NCBI RefSeq assembly: GCF_002197845.1
Contig: NZ_NIDE01000005.1
Location: 1-64,000 of the forward strand
DNA: 64,000 nucleotides
DNA from: Fimbriiglobus ruber
GTDB taxonomy: Bacteria; Planctomycetota; Planctomycetia; Gemmatales; Gemmataceae
Direction of reading: 5' to 3'
Under the pieces are notes generated by a model. It did not search any database and was not told the DNA's origin. It saw only the letters and a list, made by a program, of their open reading frames with translations. The position numbers were made by a program, and so were the translations under genes. How positions within the stretch are numbered: position 1 is the first letter of the stretch; the number at the start of each line of letters is the position of its first letter. This document shows positions 45,771-55,688 of this stretch, in pieces.

Positions 45771-46721
45771 GAGCCTGTCCGGGAAGACTATTTTGATGCA
45801 ACTCTATATTTAAACGGGGGATAACGCCCTTGTGGATCCATGCGATTGAGGATCAGCTGGATTGACCGCACACGAATCATGGATTCGCTGGAACTATTCA
45901 GTCGCTCATAATTACGACTCAACCGCCGGGCCCGCCCGAGCCACCCGAACGTCCGCTCGACGACCCACCGCTTGGGTAACAGGGTGAACCCCTTCACCCC
46001 GTCCGGTCGGCGAACGATGACGAGTTCCCATCCGAGTTCCGGGTGGCCGTCTTTCCACCCGTTCAGGGCATGGTTGTGGTACTTCCCGTCGGCCCACACG
46101 ACCTTCAATCGCGGGTACGCGTCACGGTCCAACCCTTCGAGTACGGTCGGGGCCGCGGCCGCGTCGTCGACGTGCCCGGCGGTCACCGCCACGACCATCA
46201 GCAGGCCCAGCGTATCGACCACGAGCGACCGCTTCCGGCCCTGGATTTTCTTGCCCGCATCGTACCCGTTCCCGCCCGCGTGTTCGGTCCCCTTGACCGA
46301 CTGGCTGTCGATGCTCGCGGCACTCGGGGTCCGCTCGTGGCTCGGGGCGTGGACTTCCCGATACCCCTCCCGGAGGACATCCAGGAGTTCTTGCCAGGTG
46401 CCATCGTCCCGCCACTGGGCGAAGTATTCGTACACCGTACTCTTGGCCGGGAAGTCGTGCGGGAGCATCGACCACTGACACCCCGACCGGTTCACGTACC
46501 AGATCGCGTTCCGCACCTCCCGGAGGTCCACCGACCGGGGGCGTCCTCCGGGTCGGGCGGCCGGCAGGACGACCTGGATGATCTCCCATTGGAGGTCGGT
46601 CAAATCTGTCGGATACGGTTTGCGAACGGTCGCATCCATGACTTCGCTCCTCGAGTACGAAGGAGCGACTAACTTAAAAGAGACGCACAACTTACAGCAA
46701 GGTCACTTTTCGGACAGCCTC
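45771..46721 (-). mobile_element. IS5-family (IS1031-type) insertion sequence, 951 bp
   Basis: Ends GAGCCTGTCCGGGAAG and, on the other strand, GAGGCTGTCCGAAAAG form an imperfect 16-bp terminal repeat (13 of 16). TCA is duplicated at 45768-45770 and 46722-46724, the 3-bp TNA target duplication typical of the IS1031 group. It carries one intact transposase gene and is probably active or recently active. Confidence 0.93.
45788..46639 (-). CDS. IS5-family DDE transposase
   Basis: 283 residues from ATG 46639 (MDATVRKPYPTDLTDLQWEI); the frame extends 17 codons upstream without need. N-terminal helix-turn-helix region WEIIQVVLPAARPGGRPRSV and NAIWYVNRSGCQWSMLPHDF (IS5 DUF4096-type). Catalytic triad: Asp in ASIDSQSVKG, Asp in VWADGKYHNH, Glu in WVVERTFGWLGRARRLSRNY. 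No frameshift, so a complete enzyme. Confidence 0.95.
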   Translation of the reverse strand: MDATVRKPYPTDLTDLQWEIIQVVLPAARPGGRPRSVDLREVRNAIWYVNRSGCQWSMLPHDFPAKSTVYEYFAQWRDDGTWQELLDVLREGYREVHAPSHERTPSAASIDSQSVKGTEHAGGNGYDAGKKIQGRKRSLVVDTLGLLMVVAVTAGHVDDAAAAPTVLEGLDRDAYPRLKVVWADGKYHNHALNGWKDGHPELGWELVIVRRPDGVKGFTLLPKRWVVERTFGWLGRARRLSRNYERLNSSSESMIRVRSIQLILNRMDPQGRYPPFKYRVASK

Positions 46722-47289: not shown

Positions 47290-47389
47290 CAGCATGCCCT
47301 CCTTCGCCTGACTTGTTATTAGATTGCCCACGCGCAATCTTTCGCTTGTGCCCAATCAGACCACGTTGTTTGACGCAGATCAAGCTGCT

Positions 47390-47563
47390 GGGTGCCGCAG
47401 TTACGGCAGCCCGCGATCGCGCGATCTACCCCACTAACGGAGCTTGCGTACGCCCCCCCGCATCCGGCGACGCGTCTCACTTCTTGACCGCGATCACCGC
47501 GTCCAGCGGCGATGGCGTGCGGTACCCTTGCACGCCCGCGAAGCCGACCTGGGTGAGCAGGTC
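47390..47563. repeat. Left copy of a direct repeat: 3' end of an O-methyltransferase gene
   Basis: On the minus strand 47477-47563 encodes DLLTQVGFAGVQGYRTPSPL and DAVIAVKK followed by a stop, 25 of 28 residues identical to the end of the methyltransferase at 53444-54469. Similarity continues through about 85 nt past the stop (from AGCTGCTG at 47393), matching 53349-53443. Nothing of the upstream methyltransferase part is present; the TIR-NLR gene ends 32 nt away instead. Confidence 0.85.
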
Positions 47564-47594
47564 CGGGATCGGACAGCTGCAGCGGGTCCGTGTC

Positions 47595-50500
47595 TCAGTG
47601 GCCGCGTTCCAGGGCGTCAGCTTCGTCCCCCCGGCCGAGCTTGCGGAGCAGATCGCCGAGCGCGGCACGGCTCTTCGCGAGGTCGGGGTGGGCGGGGTCG
47701 AGCACGGTTTCGCGTGCCGCCAGAGCCCGGCGGTGGAGCGCCTCCGCCTCGTCGAGGCGGTTAAGAGCCCGGAGCAACTCGGCGAGCTTGTACAGGCCGC
47801 TGGTCGTGTCGATGTGGGCGGGGTCGAGCACGGCTTCGCGTGCCGCCAGAGCCCGGCGGTGTAACGCCTCCGCCTCGACAGGGTGGCCAAGGGCCGCGAG
47901 GATTTCCGCTAGGATGTCAAGGCTCTTGGCCGTCTCGGGGTGGCCCGGCCCCAACGCCGCCTCGCGGATCGCCAGAGCACGACGGCCGACCGACTCGGCA
48001 TCGTCGAGCGACAATCGCGCCTGGAGGAACTCGGCGAGACTGTGCAGGCCTTTGGCCGTGGTGGGGTGATGGAGCCCCAGCGCCGCTTCACGAAGTTCGA
48101 GTGACCGGCGGTAGAGCGGTTCGGCCCCGGAGAGGTCGCCACGGTCCTTGAACAACTCGGCAAGAAAGACGAGGCTACTGGCCGTGTCGGGATGGACAGG
48201 GCCGAGCAGCCGTGTACGCGACTCGAGGCTGCTGCGGAAAAGCCGCTCGGCTTCGTCGTATCTGCCCTGCTGTTGGAGGACCCAGGCCAGGTTGTTGCGA
48301 CTGGCTGATGTATCGGAGTGGTCAGGGTCGTGGGCCTTCTCTCGCACCGCCAGAGCGTGGCGGTGGAGTGCTTCCGCCTCGGCGTACACCCCCCGTTCCT
48401 GAAGGACCCAGGCCAGGTTGTTGGCACTCAGAGCGATATCGGGATGGTTGGGTCCGAAGAGTTTTTCCCGGGTCGCCAAGATGCGGCGGTAGAGTGCCTC
48501 CGTCTCGGCGTAGCAGCCGCGGACATCAAGTAGCCAGGACAGGTCGGATGCGGCGTTCAGAGTGTCGGGGTGATCGGGGCCGAGCACCCGTTCATGAGTT
48601 TCTAGAGCGCAGCGGTTGAGAGACTCGGCCTCCGCGTATTCACCCCGATCTCGAAGAAAGGCTGCAAGGAAGTTGCGGGACCATGCCGTCTCGGGATGGT
48701 CGGGGCCAAGAGCTTTCTCGCGCACCGCCAGGGCACGGCGGTAGAACGATTCGGCCTCAGCATGCGCGCCCCGCTCTTTGAGTAGAAAAGCCAAATTACC
48801 CAGAAGCACGGCGATTTGCGGGTTTTCCACCCCGAGAGTTGACTCGCAGATCGGGAGCGCCCGACGGTAGAGTAGCTCGGCCTCCGCGAGGTCACCGCGA
48901 ATCTGGCGGATTCCAGCCAGGTTGTTCACGGCGTAAGCGGTGTCAATATGATCGGACCCTCTGGCGACCTCGTAGGCCGCCAGAGCGCGACGGTAGAGCG
49001 CCTCGGCTTCCGGATAATTGTTGCGATTCTTAAGGAACGAGGCTAGATATTTGTAATACTTGGCCGTCTCGGGGTGATCGGGGCCAAGCTGCCGCTCCTG
49101 GGTCGCCAAAGCGCGGCGAAGTAGCGCCTCGCCCTCCGCGTAGCCGCCGGCGTGCTCGAGTAGGTAGGCGAGGCGATTGAGTGTCGACACGGTGGCGGGG
49201 TGGTCTGGTCCCAGTGCCTCCTCGCACACCCCCAGCGATCGACGGAGTAATGCCTCGGCCTCCGGGTATTCGCCACGTTTTTGAAGGAGCGACGCTAAGT
49301 TATCGAGGCTAGCGGTGGTGATTGGGTGGTCGGGCCCCAGACCCGCCTCGCGCACCGAAAGCGACCGACGGAAGAACAACTCGGCCTCGGCAAAGACACC
49401 CTGGCCCTGGAGCGCCCAGGCCAAGTTGTCGAGTGCGGTGGCGGTATCGGGGTGGTTAGGCCCAAGACTCGTCTCGCGCGACGCGAGAACGCGGCGGAGC
49501 AGCGTTTCGGCCTCGGCAAACACTCCGCGATTCCAGAGGAGCACGGCCAGGTTCTTCAAGCTGCCAATCGTGTCGCTGTGATCGGGGCCGAGGGTCTTCT
49601 CGCGCACCGCCAGGGCGCGGCGGCGGAGGGGCTCGGCGTCCTCGTATGCGCCCTGTTCCTGGACAACCCACGCCACGAAGTCGATCGCGTCGGCCGTCTC
49701 GGGATGGTCGGGACCACGCGAGACTTCGCAGGCCGCCAGGGCTCGGCGAAACAGGGCTTCGGCCTCCTCGTACATGCCTCGCAGCTGAAGAACCTGGGCC
49801 AGTTCGCGGACATAATAGGACGTGTCGGGGTGGTCCGGGCCGAGCAGTGCCTCCCGTATCATCAGCCCGCGGCGGAACAACGCCTCCGACTCGCCGTAGG
49901 AACCTTGCCCCCGCAGGAAGATGGCTAAATAACCCAAGCTGTGCGCGGTGTCGGGATGGTCGGGGCCTTGCGCCCGCTCGCGAATCTCCAGGCTGCGGCG
50001 GTGTAGGACCCCGGCCTCGGCGTACTGCCCGGTGGCTTCTAGCAGCCGGGCCAGTTGGTTGAGGCCTCCGGCGAGGCTCGAGTGGTCGGGACCGAACGCG
50101 GCCTCGCGCACCGCCAGCGACCGGCGAAAGAGCGACTCCGACTCCGCGTACTGCCCTAGATCTAGAAGCAGCATCGCCAGACTGACAAGGACATTGGCGG
50201 TGTGCGGGTTGTTCGGGCCGAGTTCCCGCTCGTAGATAGGCAAGGCGCGCCGGAGTAGTGCCACGGCCTCGTCATTCCGATCCAGTCGCTTGAGCAGGTT
50301 GGCGAGCGCGTTCAGACTGAAGCCGGTTTGCAGATGCTCGGGCCCAAAGGTATTCTCGCGGGCGGCCATGGCACGGCGGTAGTGCGCTTCGGCCTCCGCG
50401 AACCGCCCGACATCCGTGAACAGGTCGGCGAGGCTGTTCAGGCTATCCGCCGTCTCGGCGTGGCCGGTGGCTAGGGCCGTCTCTCGCGCTTCCAGCGCGC

Positions 50501-53024
50501 GGCGGCCGAGGGCCTCGGCTTCGGTGTAACGCCCGCGGGTCTTGGCGAGCCTGGCGAGGTTGGCAAGGGCGTCGATGGTTTCGGAATGGCCGGGGCTGTA
50601 AGAGGCCTCGCGGATCGCTAGCACGCGCCGGAACAGCAGCTCGGCCCCGGTGTAGTCGCCACGTTCGTGCAGGAGCCGGCCCAGGTATTCGAGATCCAAT
50701 GACACTTGCGGGTGTTCCGAACCGTATGACGCCTCGTTAATGGCCAGGGCGCGGCGGAAGAGCGACTCGGCCTCTCCGGGCTTGCCCCTTTCGGCGATGA
50801 TCGATGCCAGGGTGCGGAGCGATACCGCGGTCTCGGGATGGTTTGCGCCCAGTCGCTTCTCGCGGGTCGCCACGGCGCGGCGGATCAAGGGCTCGGCCGT
50901 ACCGAATTCTCCGCAGAAGATGCCCAGGAACTGCGCGAGGCCGACAAGGCTTTCCGCCGTATCGAGGTGGTCGGGCCCCAGTGCTTTCTCCCGGATTTCC
51001 AGGACCCGCCGGAGGTAGGGCCCGGCCGAGATCCGGTTCTCGGTCTGGAAGATCAAGCCGCCCAGGTGACCGAGGCTCGTGGCCGTGTCGGGGTGGTCGG
51101 GACCAAGCGCCGCCTCGCGGACCGCCAGCGCGCGCCGAAAGCAGGTTTCCGCGGCCGAGTGTTCGCCCCGATCCTGCAGGACCAAGCCGAGCTGGCCGAG
51201 ACTCCGGGCCGTGTCTGGGTGGTCCCGGCCGGCGGACCGCTCGCGGAGCGCCAGCGCGGTCCGGTAGTGGGGCTCGGCCGCGGCATACTGGGCACGCTCC
51301 CGGAGATACGAACCCGCCCGGTCGAGTACGCTAACCGCCGCCCCCGAATGAATTCCGAACCGCTCGACCAACTCGCCGCAGGCCAGCCAGTGGGGCAAGA
51401 GTGTCTCGCACTCGGGCCAGGTCGCGAACGCGACCGCGGGGGACGCCCGGTCGAGGGCCTGAACGACGCGATCGGCCCAGTCTCGGCGGTCGCCGTCGCT
51501 CAGACCGTCGAGGACGACCGCCTGGACCAGCCGGTGGACGTCATAAGACCGCGCGGCCGCGTCGCGGCGGACGAGCGAGTACCGGGTCAACGGGGTCAAC
51601 AGTTCGTTCAGCGCGCGGGCGGGGTTGCCTCCGCCGGCCAGAGCGGCCGCCAGCCGCCCGCCCAGCGACGCGGCCCCCGCGACTGCCAGGTTGTACGGGA
51701 CTCGATCGGGTGCGAAGAAGGCGCTGGCAGTCAACAGCTCGACGGCCGCTTCGGAGCGGGACCGTACGGCCTCGAGACTCTTAGTCCAGGTCGTGCGGAC
51801 GGTGTCACGTGACCCGCCGGCGACCGGTCCGTGCTTCTCTAGTAGGTCGAGCCGGAGCCGGCGGAAGTCGCCGAGGTAATCCTCGAATCGGTCGTCGTGT
51901 ACGGCCACGTAAGCCGCAGCCTGTTCGAGCGCGAGCGGTAAGTATCCCAGCTCCCTGGCCAGGCTCTCGGCCGCGGACCGCTCGCGGGGGTCGCCGTCCA
52001 CACGCCGGGTGCGCGCGAGCAGGAACGCGCGGGCCTCGTCGGCGGCCATTCGCTCGAGGTCGACCAGGCGGTCGACGTTCAGGACGTCGAGGTTGTGGGC
52101 GCGTGACGTGATCAGGACGTGCCCGCCCGGGGCATGGGGCAGGTAGTCGCGTACTAGCGCCGGCTCGTCGGCGTTGTCCAGGATCAACAGGTAGCCGTCC
52201 TCGCGGGCCAACCAGTGCTTGACGGCCTCACGGGTCTCCTCGGCGTTGCGGGCGTCTTTCTCGGGCAGGCCGAGGATGGTGGCGATCGTGTGATAGTCGG
52301 AGCTTAGCAACGCCTCGGAGTCGGCCCGCGCCCAGAAGACCGCGCGGTATTCGGCCCGGTGGCGGTAGGCGAACTCGACGACCGTCTGCGTCTTTCCCAC
52401 TCCTCCGAGCCCGACAAGGGCCACAGTCAGGGGCGACGCGGACGCCAGTGACCCGCGGCCAGCGAACGCCTCGCGGAGCTCGTCGAGCGTGGCCGCGCGG
52501 CCCGTGAAGAACCGGTTGCGGGCGAACGGCATGATCCACAGGCCCGCGGCGGCCCGTGCTCGTGCCGCCGCGGGAGGTGGCGGTGGTGGCGGCGATGCGG
52601 AGACCGCTAGCAACTTCTTGCAGATCGCCACCCACTCCCGGTCGCGGTCGGCCTCCGACAGGCCCGCCAGCGGACGCTGGGGGTTGTTCGCGGCCTGGTA
52701 GTGGACCAGCTCCGTCTGCTCGAAGTTGGCATGCCGCAGGGCAACCCAAAGAACCCGCTTGCCGGCCAGAAGGGGGGGCAGCTCGTGCCGCGCAATGAAC
52801 TCCGAGGCAAGGAAGCTCGGGCTGACGAGCAGGACCCCGACGTCGGCGTCGGCTAGCGACGCCGCGATTTCGTCGCGCCACCGCGATGATGCCGCGATCA
52901 TCGTGTCGTCCCACAGCTCCACCAACGCCCCCCGCGCCAGGGGGGTCAGGTGCTCCCGGAACTCCTCCAGCCACAGCCGGTCCTTGTGGCTGTAACTGAT
53001 GAAGATCTTGATCGGTTGAGCCAT
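47595..53024 (-). CDS. TIR - NB-ARC - TPR protein (NLR-like candidate immune receptor)
   Basis: 1,809 residues, cytosolic. Residues 1-140: TIR domain (KIFISYSHKDRLWLEEF, VGVLLVSPSFLASEFIARHE with the candidate NADase Glu, E81). A proline-rich linker covers 142-152. Residues about 168-430: NB-ARC/STAND ATPase with Walker A GLGGVGKT (205-212), Walker B GYLLILDNAD (277-286), sensor VLITSR and a GLPLAL-type motif (LGYLPLALEQAAAYV). From about residue 590 to the end: about 29 TPR units of 42 residues, mostly with the kinesin-light-chain-type linker LGPDHPDTA. This is the layout of animal and plant NLRs and of bacterial STAND defence ATPases: TPRs sense, the ATPase oligomerises, TIR consumes NAD+. 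The related FxSxx-COOH TPR proteins of actinobacteria share it, but I see no FxSxx peptide or radical-SAM gene here. All motifs are intact. Confidence 0.92.
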   Translation of the reverse strand: MAQPIKIFISYSHKDRLWLEEFREHLTPLARGALVELWDDTMIAASSRWRDEIAASLADADVGVLLVSPSFLASEFIARHELPPLLAGKRVLWVALRHANFEQTELVHYQAANNPQRPLAGLSEADRDREWVAICKKLLAVSASPPPPPPPAAARARAAAGLWIMPFARNRFFTGRAATLDELREAFAGRGSLASASPLTVALVGLGGVGKTQTVVEFAYRHRAEYRAVFWARADSEALLSSDYHTIATILGLPEKDARNAEETREAVKHWLAREDGYLLILDNADEPALVRDYLPHAPGGHVLITSRAHNLDVLNVDRLVDLERMAADEARAFLLARTRRVDGDPRERSAAESLARELGYLPLALEQAAAYVAVHDDRFEDYLGDFRRLRLDLLEKHGPVAGGSRDTVRTTWTKSLEAVRSRSEAAVELLTASAFFAPDRVPYNLAVAGAASLGGRLAAALAGGGNPARALNELLTPLTRYSLVRRDAAARSYDVHRLVQAVVLDGLSDGDRRDWADRVVQALDRASPAVAFATWPECETLLPHWLACGELVERFGIHSGAAVSVLDRAGSYLRERAQYAAAEPHYRTALALRERSAGRDHPDTARSLGQLGLVLQDRGEHSAAETCFRRALAVREAALGPDHPDTATSLGHLGGLIFQTENRISAGPYLRRVLEIREKALGPDHLDTAESLVGLAQFLGIFCGEFGTAEPLIRRAVATREKRLGANHPETAVSLRTLASIIAERGKPGEAESLFRRALAINEASYGSEHPQVSLDLEYLGRLLHERGDYTGAELLFRRVLAIREASYSPGHSETIDALANLARLAKTRGRYTEAEALGRRALEARETALATGHAETADSLNSLADLFTDVGRFAEAEAHYRRAMAARENTFGPEHLQTGFSLNALANLLKRLDRNDEAVALLRRALPIYERELGPNNPHTANVLVSLAMLLLDLGQYAESESLFRRSLAVREAAFGPDHSSLAGGLNQLARLLEATGQYAEAGVLHRRSLEIRERAQGPDHPDTAHSLGYLAIFLRGQGSYGESEALFRRGLMIREALLGPDHPDTSYYVRELAQVLQLRGMYEEAEALFRRALAACEVSRGPDHPETADAIDFVAWVVQEQGAYEDAEPLRRRALAVREKTLGPDHSDTIGSLKNLAVLLWNRGVFAEAETLLRRVLASRETSLGPNHPDTATALDNLAWALQGQGVFAEAELFFRRSLSVREAGLGPDHPITTASLDNLASLLQKRGEYPEAEALLRRSLGVCEEALGPDHPATVSTLNRLAYLLEHAGGYAEGEALLRRALATQERQLGPDHPETAKYYKYLASFLKNRNNYPEAEALYRRALAAYEVARGSDHIDTAYAVNNLAGIRQIRGDLAEAELLYRRALPICESTLGVENPQIAVLLGNLAFLLKERGAHAEAESFYRRALAVREKALGPDHPETAWSRNFLAAFLRDRGEYAEAESLNRCALETHERVLGPDHPDTLNAASDLSWLLDVRGCYAETEALYRRILATREKLFGPNHPDIALSANNLAWVLQERGVYAEAEALHRHALAVREKAHDPDHSDTSASRNNLAWVLQQQGRYDEAERLFRSSLESRTRLLGPVHPDTASSLVFLAELFKDRGDLSGAEPLYRRSLELREAALGLHHPTTAKGLHSLAEFLQARLSLDDAESVGRRALAIREAALGPGHPETAKSLDILAEILAALGHPVEAEALHRRALAAREAVLDPAHIDTTSGLYKLAELLRALNRLDEAEALHRRALAARETVLDPAHPDLAKSRAALGDLLRKLGRGDEADALERGH
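47600..51254 (-). repeat. About 29 tandem 126-bp TPR-coding repeats
   Basis: The C-terminal two thirds of the TIR-NLR gene are made of 42-codon units read in register. Each has A-E-x-L-x-R-R-x-L/A-x-x-R-E near the middle and a G-P-D-H-P-D/E-T linker. Unit length is constant, so unit gain or loss by recombination would keep the frame. DNA similarity is moderate; residues have diverged in helix A more than in the linker. Confidence 0.85.
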
Positions 53025-53348
53025 AACCGCACCCTAAAACAGGTCGGATGCGCCCGACCAATGAGTTTCTATACTAATGTGACTGTGGGCGCCACAGAAG
53101 GAGCGAGTCGGCGCGGAGGGACGCCCGGCGGTTGACGGAATTCTGCCGTCCCACCGGAATTACGTCCAAGCTGCGCAGGGGGGCACGCCTCACTCGATCA
53201 TAGGGAGGAATCTAGCTAGAGAAAAGACAGGGTGACCGGTAAGGACATCATTCCCACGGCAATCATCCATAAGAGGCCGAATGCCCCAACTCAGTGGCCT
53301 GGCCTCTCAGCACCAACGCCCTTGGAACCGGCCCATGCGGCCGGAGCC
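53025..53348. other. Upstream region of the TIR-NLR gene
   Basis: About 320 nt between the start of the TIR-NLR gene and the right direct repeat. Lower GC in places (TTTCTATACTAATGTGACTG, ATAGGGAGGAATCTAGCTAG). It presumably holds the promoter. No ORF with coding bias, inverted repeats or operator recognised. Confidence 0.4.
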
Positions 53349-53530
53349 AGCTGCTGAATGCCGCCGTTTCGGTAGCCTGCGATCGTACGCGACCTCCCCC
53401 ATTAACGAGGCTTGTGCACGCCCGCTGCATCTGGCGGCCCGCCTCACTTCTTGACCGCAATCACCGCGTCCAGCGGCGACGGCGTGCGGTACCCGTGGAC
53501 GCCCTCGAAGCCGACCTGGGTGAGCAGGTT
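53349..53530. repeat. Right copy of the direct repeat (3' end of the intact O-methyltransferase gene)
   Basis: This copy is the true 3' end and downstream flank of the methyltransferase gene; it matches 47393-47563 with small indels (the intergenic part is about 11 nt longer). Together the two copies bracket 5.8 kb containing the TIR-NLR gene and its upstream region. Confidence 0.85.
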
Positions 53531-54469
53531 CGCGTACTCGCCCAGCGTCCGCTCCTTGCCCTCGGTGCAAACGAGCATGTTGAGCGACTGGAGGACCGCC
53601 CAGTCCGGGCCGGACTTGTCGTCGTTCAGCAACTTCTCGGCGATCAGGACCGCGCCGCCGGCGGGTAGCGCCTCGTAAATACGGGTGAGCAGCTTGAGGA
53701 TCTTGGGCTCGGACCAGTCGTGCAGGATGCGGCCGAGGGCGTACACGTCGCCGGGCGGGAGCGGGTCGGTGAAGAAGTCGCCGGCCGCGAAGTCGACGCG
53801 GGCGGCCACGTTCGTCGCGCCGACCACCTCGCGGGCCAGCGGGATCGCTTCCGGAAGGTCGAACACGACCCCGCGGAGGCCGGGGTAATGACGGCAGGCG
53901 GCCACCGCCAGGTGTCCGGTCGCGCCGCCCAGGTCGACGAACGTGGTGAACCGGGACAGGTCGACCGCCGCGACCACGTGCGGCGAACTCATCAGCCCGA
54001 AGCCGTGCATGCCAAACAGAAACTCCCGCTTCATCTCCTCGGTACGGAAGAAGTGCGAGAAGATCGGCGCGTCCCACCCGTAGGTCTGCTTCCAGCGGTT
54101 CGTCCCCTCGCGGATCGCGTCGCCGAGGTTGGCCCACATCTTCCACAGGACGGCGTTCGAGTAGTTGACGTACCCGAGCATCCGCCGCGGGCTCTCCTTG
54201 GTCAAGTACGCGGCGGCCGCGGGCGTGTTCGCGTACCCACCGTTCTCGCGGGCCAGGAGGCCGACGGCCGTACACCCGCCGAGCAACCGCTCCAGGGCGT
54301 CCGGGTCGGCGGACAGCTCGGTCGCCAGCGCGGCGGTCGTTTTGGGGCCGCCGGCCAGGGCGTCGAACACGCCGAGCCCGGCGGCCGTGAACATGACCTG
54401 GGATTTGCGGAAGGCGTTGAGCAATTCGAGGACGGGCGTCGGGTCGGGCGCGGTCGGGTCTTGCGGCAC
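53444..54469 (-). CDS. SAM-dependent O-methyltransferase (ASMT/HIOMT, caffeate-OMT type)
   Basis: 341 residues, normal for the class. N-terminal dimerisation helices (VLELLNAFRKSQVMFTAAGL, ALATELSADPDALERLLGG). SAM site FVDLGGATGHLAVAACRHYP (GxGxG-type loop, with Ala replacing one Gly). Acidic loop VVFDLPEAIPLAREV and LGRILHDWSEPKILKLL with the catalytic-type His of the class (LHDW). Probable small-molecule hydroxyl methylation in secondary metabolism; substrate unknown. Its 3' end is duplicated next to the TIR-NLR gene. Confidence 0.9.
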   Translation of the reverse strand: MPQDPTAPDPTPVLELLNAFRKSQVMFTAAGLGVFDALAGGPKTTAALATELSADPDALERLLGGCTAVGLLARENGGYANTPAAAAYLTKESPRRMLGYVNYSNAVLWKMWANLGDAIREGTNRWKQTYGWDAPIFSHFFRTEEMKREFLFGMHGFGLMSSPHVVAAVDLSRFTTFVDLGGATGHLAVAACRHYPGLRGVVFDLPEAIPLAREVVGATNVAARVDFAAGDFFTDPLPPGDVYALGRILHDWSEPKILKLLTRIYEALPAGGAVLIAEKLLNDDKSGPDWAVLQSLNMLVCTEGKERTLGEYANLLTQVGFEGVHGYRTPSPLDAVIAVKK

Positions 54470-54617: not shown

Positions 54618-55688
54618 ATGGACGACCGCGCGCACGCCTTTTTGAAGCAAGTCCTCGAAACGCCGAGTCCGTCGGGGTATGAGCAGCCGGTGCAGGCCGT
54701 CGTCCGCGGGTGGGCTCGGGAGTTCGCCGACGAGGTGAAGACGGACTCGCACGGCAACGTGTTCGCGGCCCGGTTCCCCGAAGGCCGGCCGGCCGACGCC
54801 CCGCGGGTCATGCTCGCCGGGCACTGCGACCAGATCGGGCTCATGGTCCAGTACGTCGACGGCGAGGGGTTCCTGTACGTCCAGCCGATCGGCGGGTGGG
54901 ACATGCAGATCCTCCTCGGCCAGTACCTCACCGTCTGGACGAAAACCGGCCCGGTGACGGGCGTGGTCGCCCGCCGGGCGATCCACCTGATGTCGAGTGA
55001 CGAGCGGAACCGGGTGCCGCAGTTCACCGACGTGTGGGTCGACATCGGCTGCAAGAACAAGGAAGAAGCCGAGCAACTCGTCCGGCACGGCGACCCGGTC
55101 ACGTTCGCTCTGGGCTACCGCGAGCTGCGGAACGGCCTGGCCGCGTCGCCGGCGATGGACGACAAGGTCGGGCTGTGGGTGGTGATGGAGGCCCTCCGCC
55201 TGCTCCGCGAACGCCCGCTCCGGGCGGCCGTGTACTCGGTGTCGACGGTGGCCGAGGAAATCGGCCTGCGCGGGGCGACCACGGCGACGTACGCCGTCGA
55301 CCCGCACGTCGGGATCGCGGTCGACGTCTGCCACGCGACCGACACGCCGGGGAACGACAAGAAGCAGGTCGGGGAGACGAAGTGCGGGGCCGGCCCGGTC
55401 CTGTTCCGCGGGCCGAACATCAACCCCCGCGTACTCGATAAGCTCGAAGAGATCGCGGCGGCCCACGGCATCCCCGTCCAGGTCCGCGGGGCGCCGAAGG
55501 CGACGGGGACGGACGCGAACGCGATGCAGATCACCCGCCGGGGCGTGGCCGTCGCGCTGGTCGGCATCCCGAACCGGTACATGCACAGCCCGGTCGAGGT
55601 GGTCCACCGGGACGACCTGACGAACGCCGCCCGCCTGCTGGCCGAGTTCTGCGCGGCCGTCGGCCCGGAGAACGACTGGACGCCGTGA
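54618..55688 (+). CDS. M42-family metallopeptidase (glutamyl-aminopeptidase/FrvX-like)
   Basis: 356 residues, family length. Two-zinc site readable: His in LAGHCDQIGLM, bridging Asp in ASPAMDDKVGLW, Glu-Glu in STVAEEIGLRG, Asp in VDVCHATDTP and His in RYMHSPVEVVH. These are cytosolic aminopeptidases forming large tetrahedral assemblies that trim peptides. Divergent from the methyltransferase gene across 148 nt. Monocistronic. Confidence 0.92.
   Translation: MDDRAHAFLKQVLETPSPSGYEQPVQAVVRGWAREFADEVKTDSHGNVFAARFPEGRPADAPRVMLAGHCDQIGLMVQYVDGEGFLYVQPIGGWDMQILLGQYLTVWTKTGPVTGVVARRAIHLMSSDERNRVPQFTDVWVDIGCKNKEEAEQLVRHGDPVTFALGYRELRNGLAASPAMDDKVGLWVVMEALRLLRERPLRAAVYSVSTVAEEIGLRGATTATYAVDPHVGIAVDVCHATDTPGNDKKQVGETKCGAGPVLFRGPNINPRVLDKLEEIAAAHGIPVQVRGAPKATGTDANAMQITRRGVAVALVGIPNRYMHSPVEVVHRDDLTNAARLLAEFCAAVGPENDWTP

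What the first reader, a model, noticed from the sequence alone, without database searches (positions are those of the whole stretch)
47390..53530. TIR-NB-ARC-TPR gene bracketed by two copies of a methyltransferase 3' end
The 5.4-kb NLR-like gene lies exactly between two direct repeats of about 175 bp (47393-47563 and 53349-53530), both being the end of the O-methyltransferase gene plus its downstream flank. The encoded last 28 residues match at 25 positions, yet the DNA has diverged, so the event is old. Either the gene was inserted with duplication of the target region, or it replaced most of a tandem methyltransferase copy. Cargo genes placed at the 3' end of a conserved gene that is then restored resemble defence-island cassettes integrating at a fixed site.
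Basis: partly seen in the sequence, partly recalled or inferred. Interest (0 to 1): 0.8.

Follow-up and report, generated by a model that had tools for sequence, protein, structure and literature searches.

The report
Immune-like gene between duplicated gene ends
A bacterial immune-receptor-like gene sits between two diverged copies of the end of its neighbour gene, most likely because incoming DNA that carried its own copy of that gene end recombined in; the same layout at three unrelated genes of this genome argues against a special defence-gene docking site.

Summary
A ~184-bp direct repeat (47384-47566 and 53350-53533, ~85% identical, only these two places in the 12.36-Mb genome) brackets an intact 1,809-aa TIR / NB-ARC-like / TPR gene; 25 of the last 28 methyltransferase (MTase) residues match. 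The fixed-site defence-cassette reading is not supported: the MTase is patchy (21 of 95 family genomes) with variable neighbours, other MTase loci examined have no orphan tail, relatives of the NLR elsewhere are not bracketed, and no recombinase or common core was found. The same layout (gene, cargo, orphan 3' end) recurs at three unrelated genes in 1.66 Mb of this genome. In the U32 peptidase case the intact gene's last ~130 codons are foreign in composition and less like orthologues than the orphan end, so those repeats were already diverged when the insert arrived. I favour RecA-type integration of incoming DNA carrying its own MTase 3' end plus the NLR (single crossover or homology-facilitated illegitimate recombination). 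Divergence then need not mean age. The main rival is an old tandem MTase duplication, one copy of which the NLR largely replaced; the MTase tail is too short to settle which copy is native.

The parts
53350..53533 (-). Proximal repeat copy: last codons of the intact MTase gene plus ~94 bp of 3' flank
47384..47566 (-). Distal repeat copy: orphan MTase 3' tail (28 codons plus stop, stop at 47477-47479) plus ~93 bp of 3' flank
   Evidence: only other match in the genome
53444..54469 (-). Intact O-methyltransferase (Methyltransf_2 plus dimerisation domain), 341 aa
   Evidence: PF00891 3.9e-57, PF08100 4.7e-22; orthologues
47595..53024 (-). TIR - NB-ARC-like NTPase - ~28 TPR (42-aa) protein, 1,809 aa, the bracketed cargo
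52728..53006 (-). TIR domain (residues 7-99), Glu81 in the SPSF...HEL segment
   Evidence: TIR_2, 42.6 bits; ThsB TIR-like
51906..52442 (-). NB-ARC/STAND-like NTPase core (residues 195-373): P-loop GLGGVGKT at 205, Walker B LLILDN at 279, LITSR at 304, GYLPLAL at 360
47680..51278 (-). TPR array, 126-bp period (28 copies listed)
53025..53349 (-). 325-bp spacer between the proximal repeat and the NLR start; no similarity to MTase upstream DNA or elsewhere in the genome
47567..47594 (-). 28-bp junction between the NLR stop and the orphan MTase tail
54618..55688 (+). M42 aminopeptidase, divergent neighbour of the MTase; pair shared with two Fimbriiglobus MAGs (G084, G085)

Best explanation
The structure is most likely the scar of one horizontal-transfer event. 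Incoming DNA carried a related MTase's 3' end, its short 3' flank and, downstream, the TIR-NB-ARC-TPR gene. It recombined with the resident MTase through the shared 3' end: either a linear fragment whose ends were joined into a circle entered by a single crossover, or it entered by homology-facilitated illegitimate recombination. The MTase stays whole, the NLR now lies behind it, and a second MTase 3' end with its downstream DNA is left as an orphan. The repeat edge inside the coding region (47566) is the random joining point; the other edge (47384) is where donor and recipient flanks stop being alike. The ~15% difference is then donor-recipient divergence, not age. Shown: the repeat, the intact NLR, the lineage-specific extra tail, the lower divergence in the coding part, the same architecture at three other loci, and a foreign end in one of them (U32). 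Inferred: which MTase copy is native, the recombination pathway, and the NLR's role (from its domains: TPR sensing, NB-ARC oligomerisation and TIR NADase leading to abortive infection, as in bacterial TIR/STAND defence proteins).
For: Repeat and intact NLR. Only this genome has the orphan tail among the MTase loci examined; two genomes with the same M42-MTase neighbourhood have a single 3' end. Coding tail less diverged than flank, 5/84 v 19/92, p = 0.007, changes mostly at third positions, as expected if both copies were functional gene ends until the event. Three parallel cases in 1.66 Mb of the same genome: U32 peptidase, DUF1501 protein (two cassettes), SDR. In the U32 case GC3 falls from ~0.93 to 0.47-0.69 in the intact gene's last ~105 codons while the orphan keeps 0.70-0.93, and the orphan is closer to orthologues in 24 of 28 untied comparisons (sign test p = 0.0002), so the intact gene's end came in with AT-rich cargo (GC 0.45). 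Published experimental parallel: in E. coli, DNA carrying a lacZ-end fragment mostly integrated by single crossover of circularised molecules, leaving partial lacZ duplications of 109-950 bp (PMC3240628); in Vibrio cholerae T6SS loci the addition of modules with displacement of older gene parts is explained by homology-facilitated illegitimate recombination (PMC5361080).
Against: In the MTase case neither composition nor the 28-residue tail shows which copy is foreign. No donor genome with this NLR next to an MTase was found; NLR relatives share only 33-39% identity and lie elsewhere. In the DUF1501 case the orphan copies, not the gene's own end, are the decayed ones, so U32 may not represent all cases. 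Nearest relatives are distant (58-68% aa in the MTase), so the pre-insertion downstream side cannot be aligned.
Confidence: 0.5

Rival explanations
1. The MTase gene with its 3' flank was once duplicated in tandem; both copies were kept for a long time, then an NLR insertion with deletion removed all but the last 28 codons of the second copy.
For: Coding tail less diverged than flank fits a long period as two working genes. G112 of the same family has two full MTase copies, 95% identical over 1,069 bp, in the same orientation with about 8 kb of unrelated genes between them.
Against: Needs two events; no remnant of the second copy's 5' part or of MTase upstream DNA lies between the repeats. The U32 parallel cannot be paralogue decay, because the gene's end differs sharply in composition from its body.
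Confidence: 0.3
2. The NLR is a cargo cassette integrated by a site-specific recombinase at an attachment site in the MTase 3' end, with target duplication and gene restoration.
For: Repeats flank the insert closely, the gene end is restored, and the repeat edge has a 24-bp identical run. In U32 the native-to-foreign switch and the start of the orphan fall within a few codons of each other.
Against: No recombinase between the repeats; the MTase is not a conserved site (21 of 95 genomes); the other MTase loci examined show no cargo between such tails, G112's two whole copies apart; the four loci share no apparent core motif; the divergence is far above that of attachment repeats.
Confidence: 0.08
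3. The NLR inserted once and duplicated the target itself; the copies have since diverged neutrally.
For: Layout fits.
Against: A ~184-bp duplication is far longer than usual transposon target duplications (general knowledge); the orphan would be free of selection from birth, so its coding part should have diverged about as fast as the flank; 5/84 v 19/92 is against this, though not decisive.
Confidence: 0.07

Closest known systems
Single-crossover integration of circularised DNA and homology-facilitated illegitimate recombination (E. coli, PMC3240628; also S. pneumoniae, A. baylyi and P. stutzeri as cited there)
   Same: Incoming DNA with homology to a gene end integrates and leaves a partial duplication of that end (109-950 bp in E. 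coli) beside the cargo
   Different: Here natural, in a planctomycete, with 15% diverged copies and an NLR as cargo; not demonstrated experimentally
Displacement of T6SS effector genes and Rhs C-terminal displacement (Vibrio cholerae, PMC5361080)
   Same: Orphan 3' gene parts left downstream of an inserted module; homology-facilitated illegitimate recombination proposed
   Different: There the conserved 5' part is shared and the 3' parts differ; here the 3' end itself is duplicated and the gene product is unchanged
Integrative elements at gene 3' ends (attachment-site duplication)
   Same: Gene end restored, direct repeats at both ends
   Different: No integrase, no short core common to the loci, divergent long repeats, site not conserved
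Bacterial TIR-STAND/NLR-like proteins (NB-ARC plus TPR), incl. NCBIfam FxSxx_TPR NF040586
   Same: TIR_2, NB-ARC-like NTPase motifs, TPR_10 array
   Different: Below the FxSxx_TPR cut-off (266 of 300 bits) and the NB-ARC gathering score (23.0 of 23.5); best relatives found 33-39% identical

Membership tests
TIR-NB-ARC-TPR (NLR-like STAND) protein | TIR domain | tested here: met
   TIR_2 42.6 bits, cut-off 28; ThsB-like TIR
TIR-NB-ARC-TPR (NLR-like STAND) protein | NB-ARC NTPase with P-loop, Walker B, GLPL-like motif | tested here: inconclusive
   motifs present; Pfam NB-ARC 23.0 bits, just under its 23.5 cut-off; AAA_22 and DUF7779 above theirs
TIR-NB-ARC-TPR (NLR-like STAND) protein | C-terminal TPR array | tested here: met
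   28 TPR_10 stretches, 126-bp period
TIR-NB-ARC-TPR (NLR-like STAND) protein | NADase activity and phage defence | not testable with these tools
   needs experiment
FxSxx-COOH system TPR protein (NF040586) | score at or above the curated cut-off | tested here: not met
   266 of 300 bits
Site-specific cassette at a fixed gene end | Recombinase gene within the element | tested here: not met
   only the NLR gene between the repeats
Site-specific cassette at a fixed gene end | Other loci with cargo between the same repeats, or excised circle | tested here: not met
   no orphan tail at the other MTase loci; one genome, G112, has two whole MTase copies with genes between; circles not testable
Site-specific cassette at a fixed gene end | Common core sequence at junctions | tested here: not met
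   no core apparent across four loci
Homology-driven additive integration (single crossover or homology-facilitated) | Partial duplication of the gene end next to cargo | tested here: met
Homology-driven additive integration (single crossover or homology-facilitated) | One duplicated end is of foreign origin | tested here: inconclusive
   shown for U32; MTase tail too short; in DUF1501 the orphans look decayed

The most novel reading that the evidence does not exclude
This genome may carry a general, still unknown mechanism that inserts accessory genes into the 3' ends of many different host genes, each insert bringing a matching replacement end for its own target gene, without a recombinase in the insert.
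Probability: 0.08. Interest if true: 0.75.

Novelty: new member of a known kind. Interest (0 to 1): 0.35.

Why it matters
It shows how a large NLR-like gene can settle behind another gene without breaking it, and warns that divergence between flanking repeats does not date an insertion. The repeated pattern (gene, cargo, orphan 3' end) in one 12-Mb planctomycete genome gives a simple signature with which traces of incoming DNA can be counted in bacteria with very large genomes.

Tried and rejected
First neighbour script printed nothing because of my own file error, repeated. Shared terminator structure of the flanks: no unusual folding (z 0.12 and -0.62). Remnant of the MTase 5' part or of its upstream DNA between the repeats: none. 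NLR relatives bracketed by repeats of a neighbour's end elsewhere: none. Common junction core: none apparent. Many repeat pairs in the background scan are IS copies or small palindromic repeats and were set aside. Tail-versus-head asymmetry was counted over 1.66 Mb, but numbers are small and partly antisense or IS artefacts, so I make no statistical claim. An assembly artefact is unlikely: the copies differ by 15%.

Full report
Observation. A direct repeat of about 184 bp (47384-47566 and 53350-53533) is present as described: 157 identities, 25 mismatches and 3 gap positions. A search of the whole own genome (12.36 Mb, 20 contigs) with 47390-47563 finds only these two places. The repeat holds the last 28 codons and the stop of the methyltransferase (MTase) gene 53444-54469 (minus) and about 93 bp of 3' flank; 25 of 28 residues match. 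Between the copies lies one intact 1,809-codon gene, 47595-53024 (minus), with TIR_2, NB-ARC-like motifs, DUF7779 and 28 TPR_10 stretches. Pfam NB-ARC itself scores 23.0 bits, just below its cut-off of 23.5, and NCBIfam FxSxx_TPR 266 of 300, so I call it NLR-like by domain content and motifs.

Organism. The two genomes given as the same genus (G001, G002) have MTase contigs of the same lengths as contigs titled Fimbriiglobus sp. in the named collection.

Divergence. In the coding tail 5 of 84 nt differ, 4 of them at third codon positions; in the flank 19 of 92 aligned nt differ, plus 3 gap positions (Fisher p = 0.007). The copies therefore seem to have spent most of their separate history as working gene ends. 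This fits both an imported gene end and an old tandem paralogue; it fits less well a target duplication made at insertion.

Relatives. An MTase of this subfamily (E <= 1e-100) occurs in 21 of 95 family genomes, including the window's own, with neighbours that mostly differ. The divergent M42 peptidase-MTase pair with the MarC-like gene is shared by the window, G084 and G085; downstream of the MTase those two have other genes and a single MTase 3' end. None of the other family MTase loci fetched, nor any of 80 loci of the named genome collection, has an orphan tail (one 20-residue match at 50% identity, E 0.009, in L294 I take as chance). The exception in kind is G112, with two full MTase copies, 95% identical over 1,069 bp and about 8 kb apart. 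The NLR N-terminal half has no match at E <= 1e-40 in other genomes of the family, and 33-39% relatives in five genomes of a phylum sample; in six fetched loci these relatives are not bracketed by repeats of a neighbouring gene's end.

Parallel cases in the same genome. A scan of 1.66 Mb (C5 1-864 kb, C17 1-400 kb, C1 1-400 kb) shows three further 'gene - cargo - orphan 3' end' loci: a U32 peptidase (named by eye from its sequence; C5:313115-315682) with an AT-rich WD40-like ORF and a short HINT-like ORF (both names by eye, not tested) before its orphan end; a DUF1501-type protein (also named by eye; C17:256771-258087) followed by two cassettes of repeat-rich ORFs, each ending in a tail copy; and an SDR (by eye; C1:561-1406) with a methyltransferase-like gene between the copies. 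Cargo differs in all, and the junctions share no apparent core.

The U32 case is the informative one. GC3 of the intact gene is about 0.93 up to codon ~720 and 0.47-0.69 after codon 750, while the orphan has 0.70-0.93. Over codons 751-855 the orphan is closer than the gene's own end to orthologues in 24 of 29 genomes, 4 the other way, one tie (sign test p = 0.0002; the genomes are related, so the p-value is optimistic). So the orphan is most likely the displaced native end, and the intact gene's end came with the cargo. The copies were already different when they met. In the DUF1501 case, by contrast, the gene's own end is the conserved one and the orphans have lost conserved residues, so direction differs between cases.

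Mechanism. Published experiments in E. coli found that incoming molecules with a lacZ-end fragment mostly integrated after circularisation by a single crossover, leaving a partial lacZ duplication of 109-950 bp (PMC3240628). Homology-facilitated illegitimate recombination is the explanation proposed for displaced gene parts in Vibrio cholerae T6SS arrays (PMC5361080). Either path gives the layout seen here without a recombinase, explains a repeat edge at an arbitrary codon 28 bp from the NLR stop, and explains divergence without age. I put this at 0.5, a tandem MTase duplicate largely replaced by the NLR at 0.3, and a site-specific cassette at 0.08.

Limits. The MTase tail is too short to show which copy is native, no donor was found, and the nearest relatives are distant. 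The background scan used a simple gene caller and about 13% of the genome. The NLR's defence role is an inference from domains only.

Noticed in passing
G000:C5:310926-315682 (in locus L142): U32-peptidase-like gene whose last ~105-130 codons are AT-rich and less like orthologues than an orphan copy of the native end 1.8 kb downstream, with a WD40-like and a HINT-like ORF between.
   Followed up: yes
G000:C17:256771-262558 (loci L220, L221): DUF1501-type gene end repeated twice downstream, each copy after an ORF of ~66-aa repeats (two cassettes in tandem).
   Followed up: partly
G000:C1:561-3313 (locus L228): SDR-type gene with its last 367 bp repeated (94%) behind a 353-aa methyltransferase-like gene.
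   Followed up: partly
L058 6146-16307 (G112:C230): Two full MTase copies, 95% identical, about 8 kb apart with repeat-rich surface-type proteins and a sigma-factor-like gene between.
   Followed up: partly
window 45788-46690: IS5-family transposase gene just beyond the orphan tail region; a near-identical copy is at G000:C1:366383-367285.
   Followed up: no
L314 6304-10037: In a Bryobacterales MAG, a recombinase-like gene has an orphan copy of its own 3' end 2.5 kb downstream.
   Followed up: no
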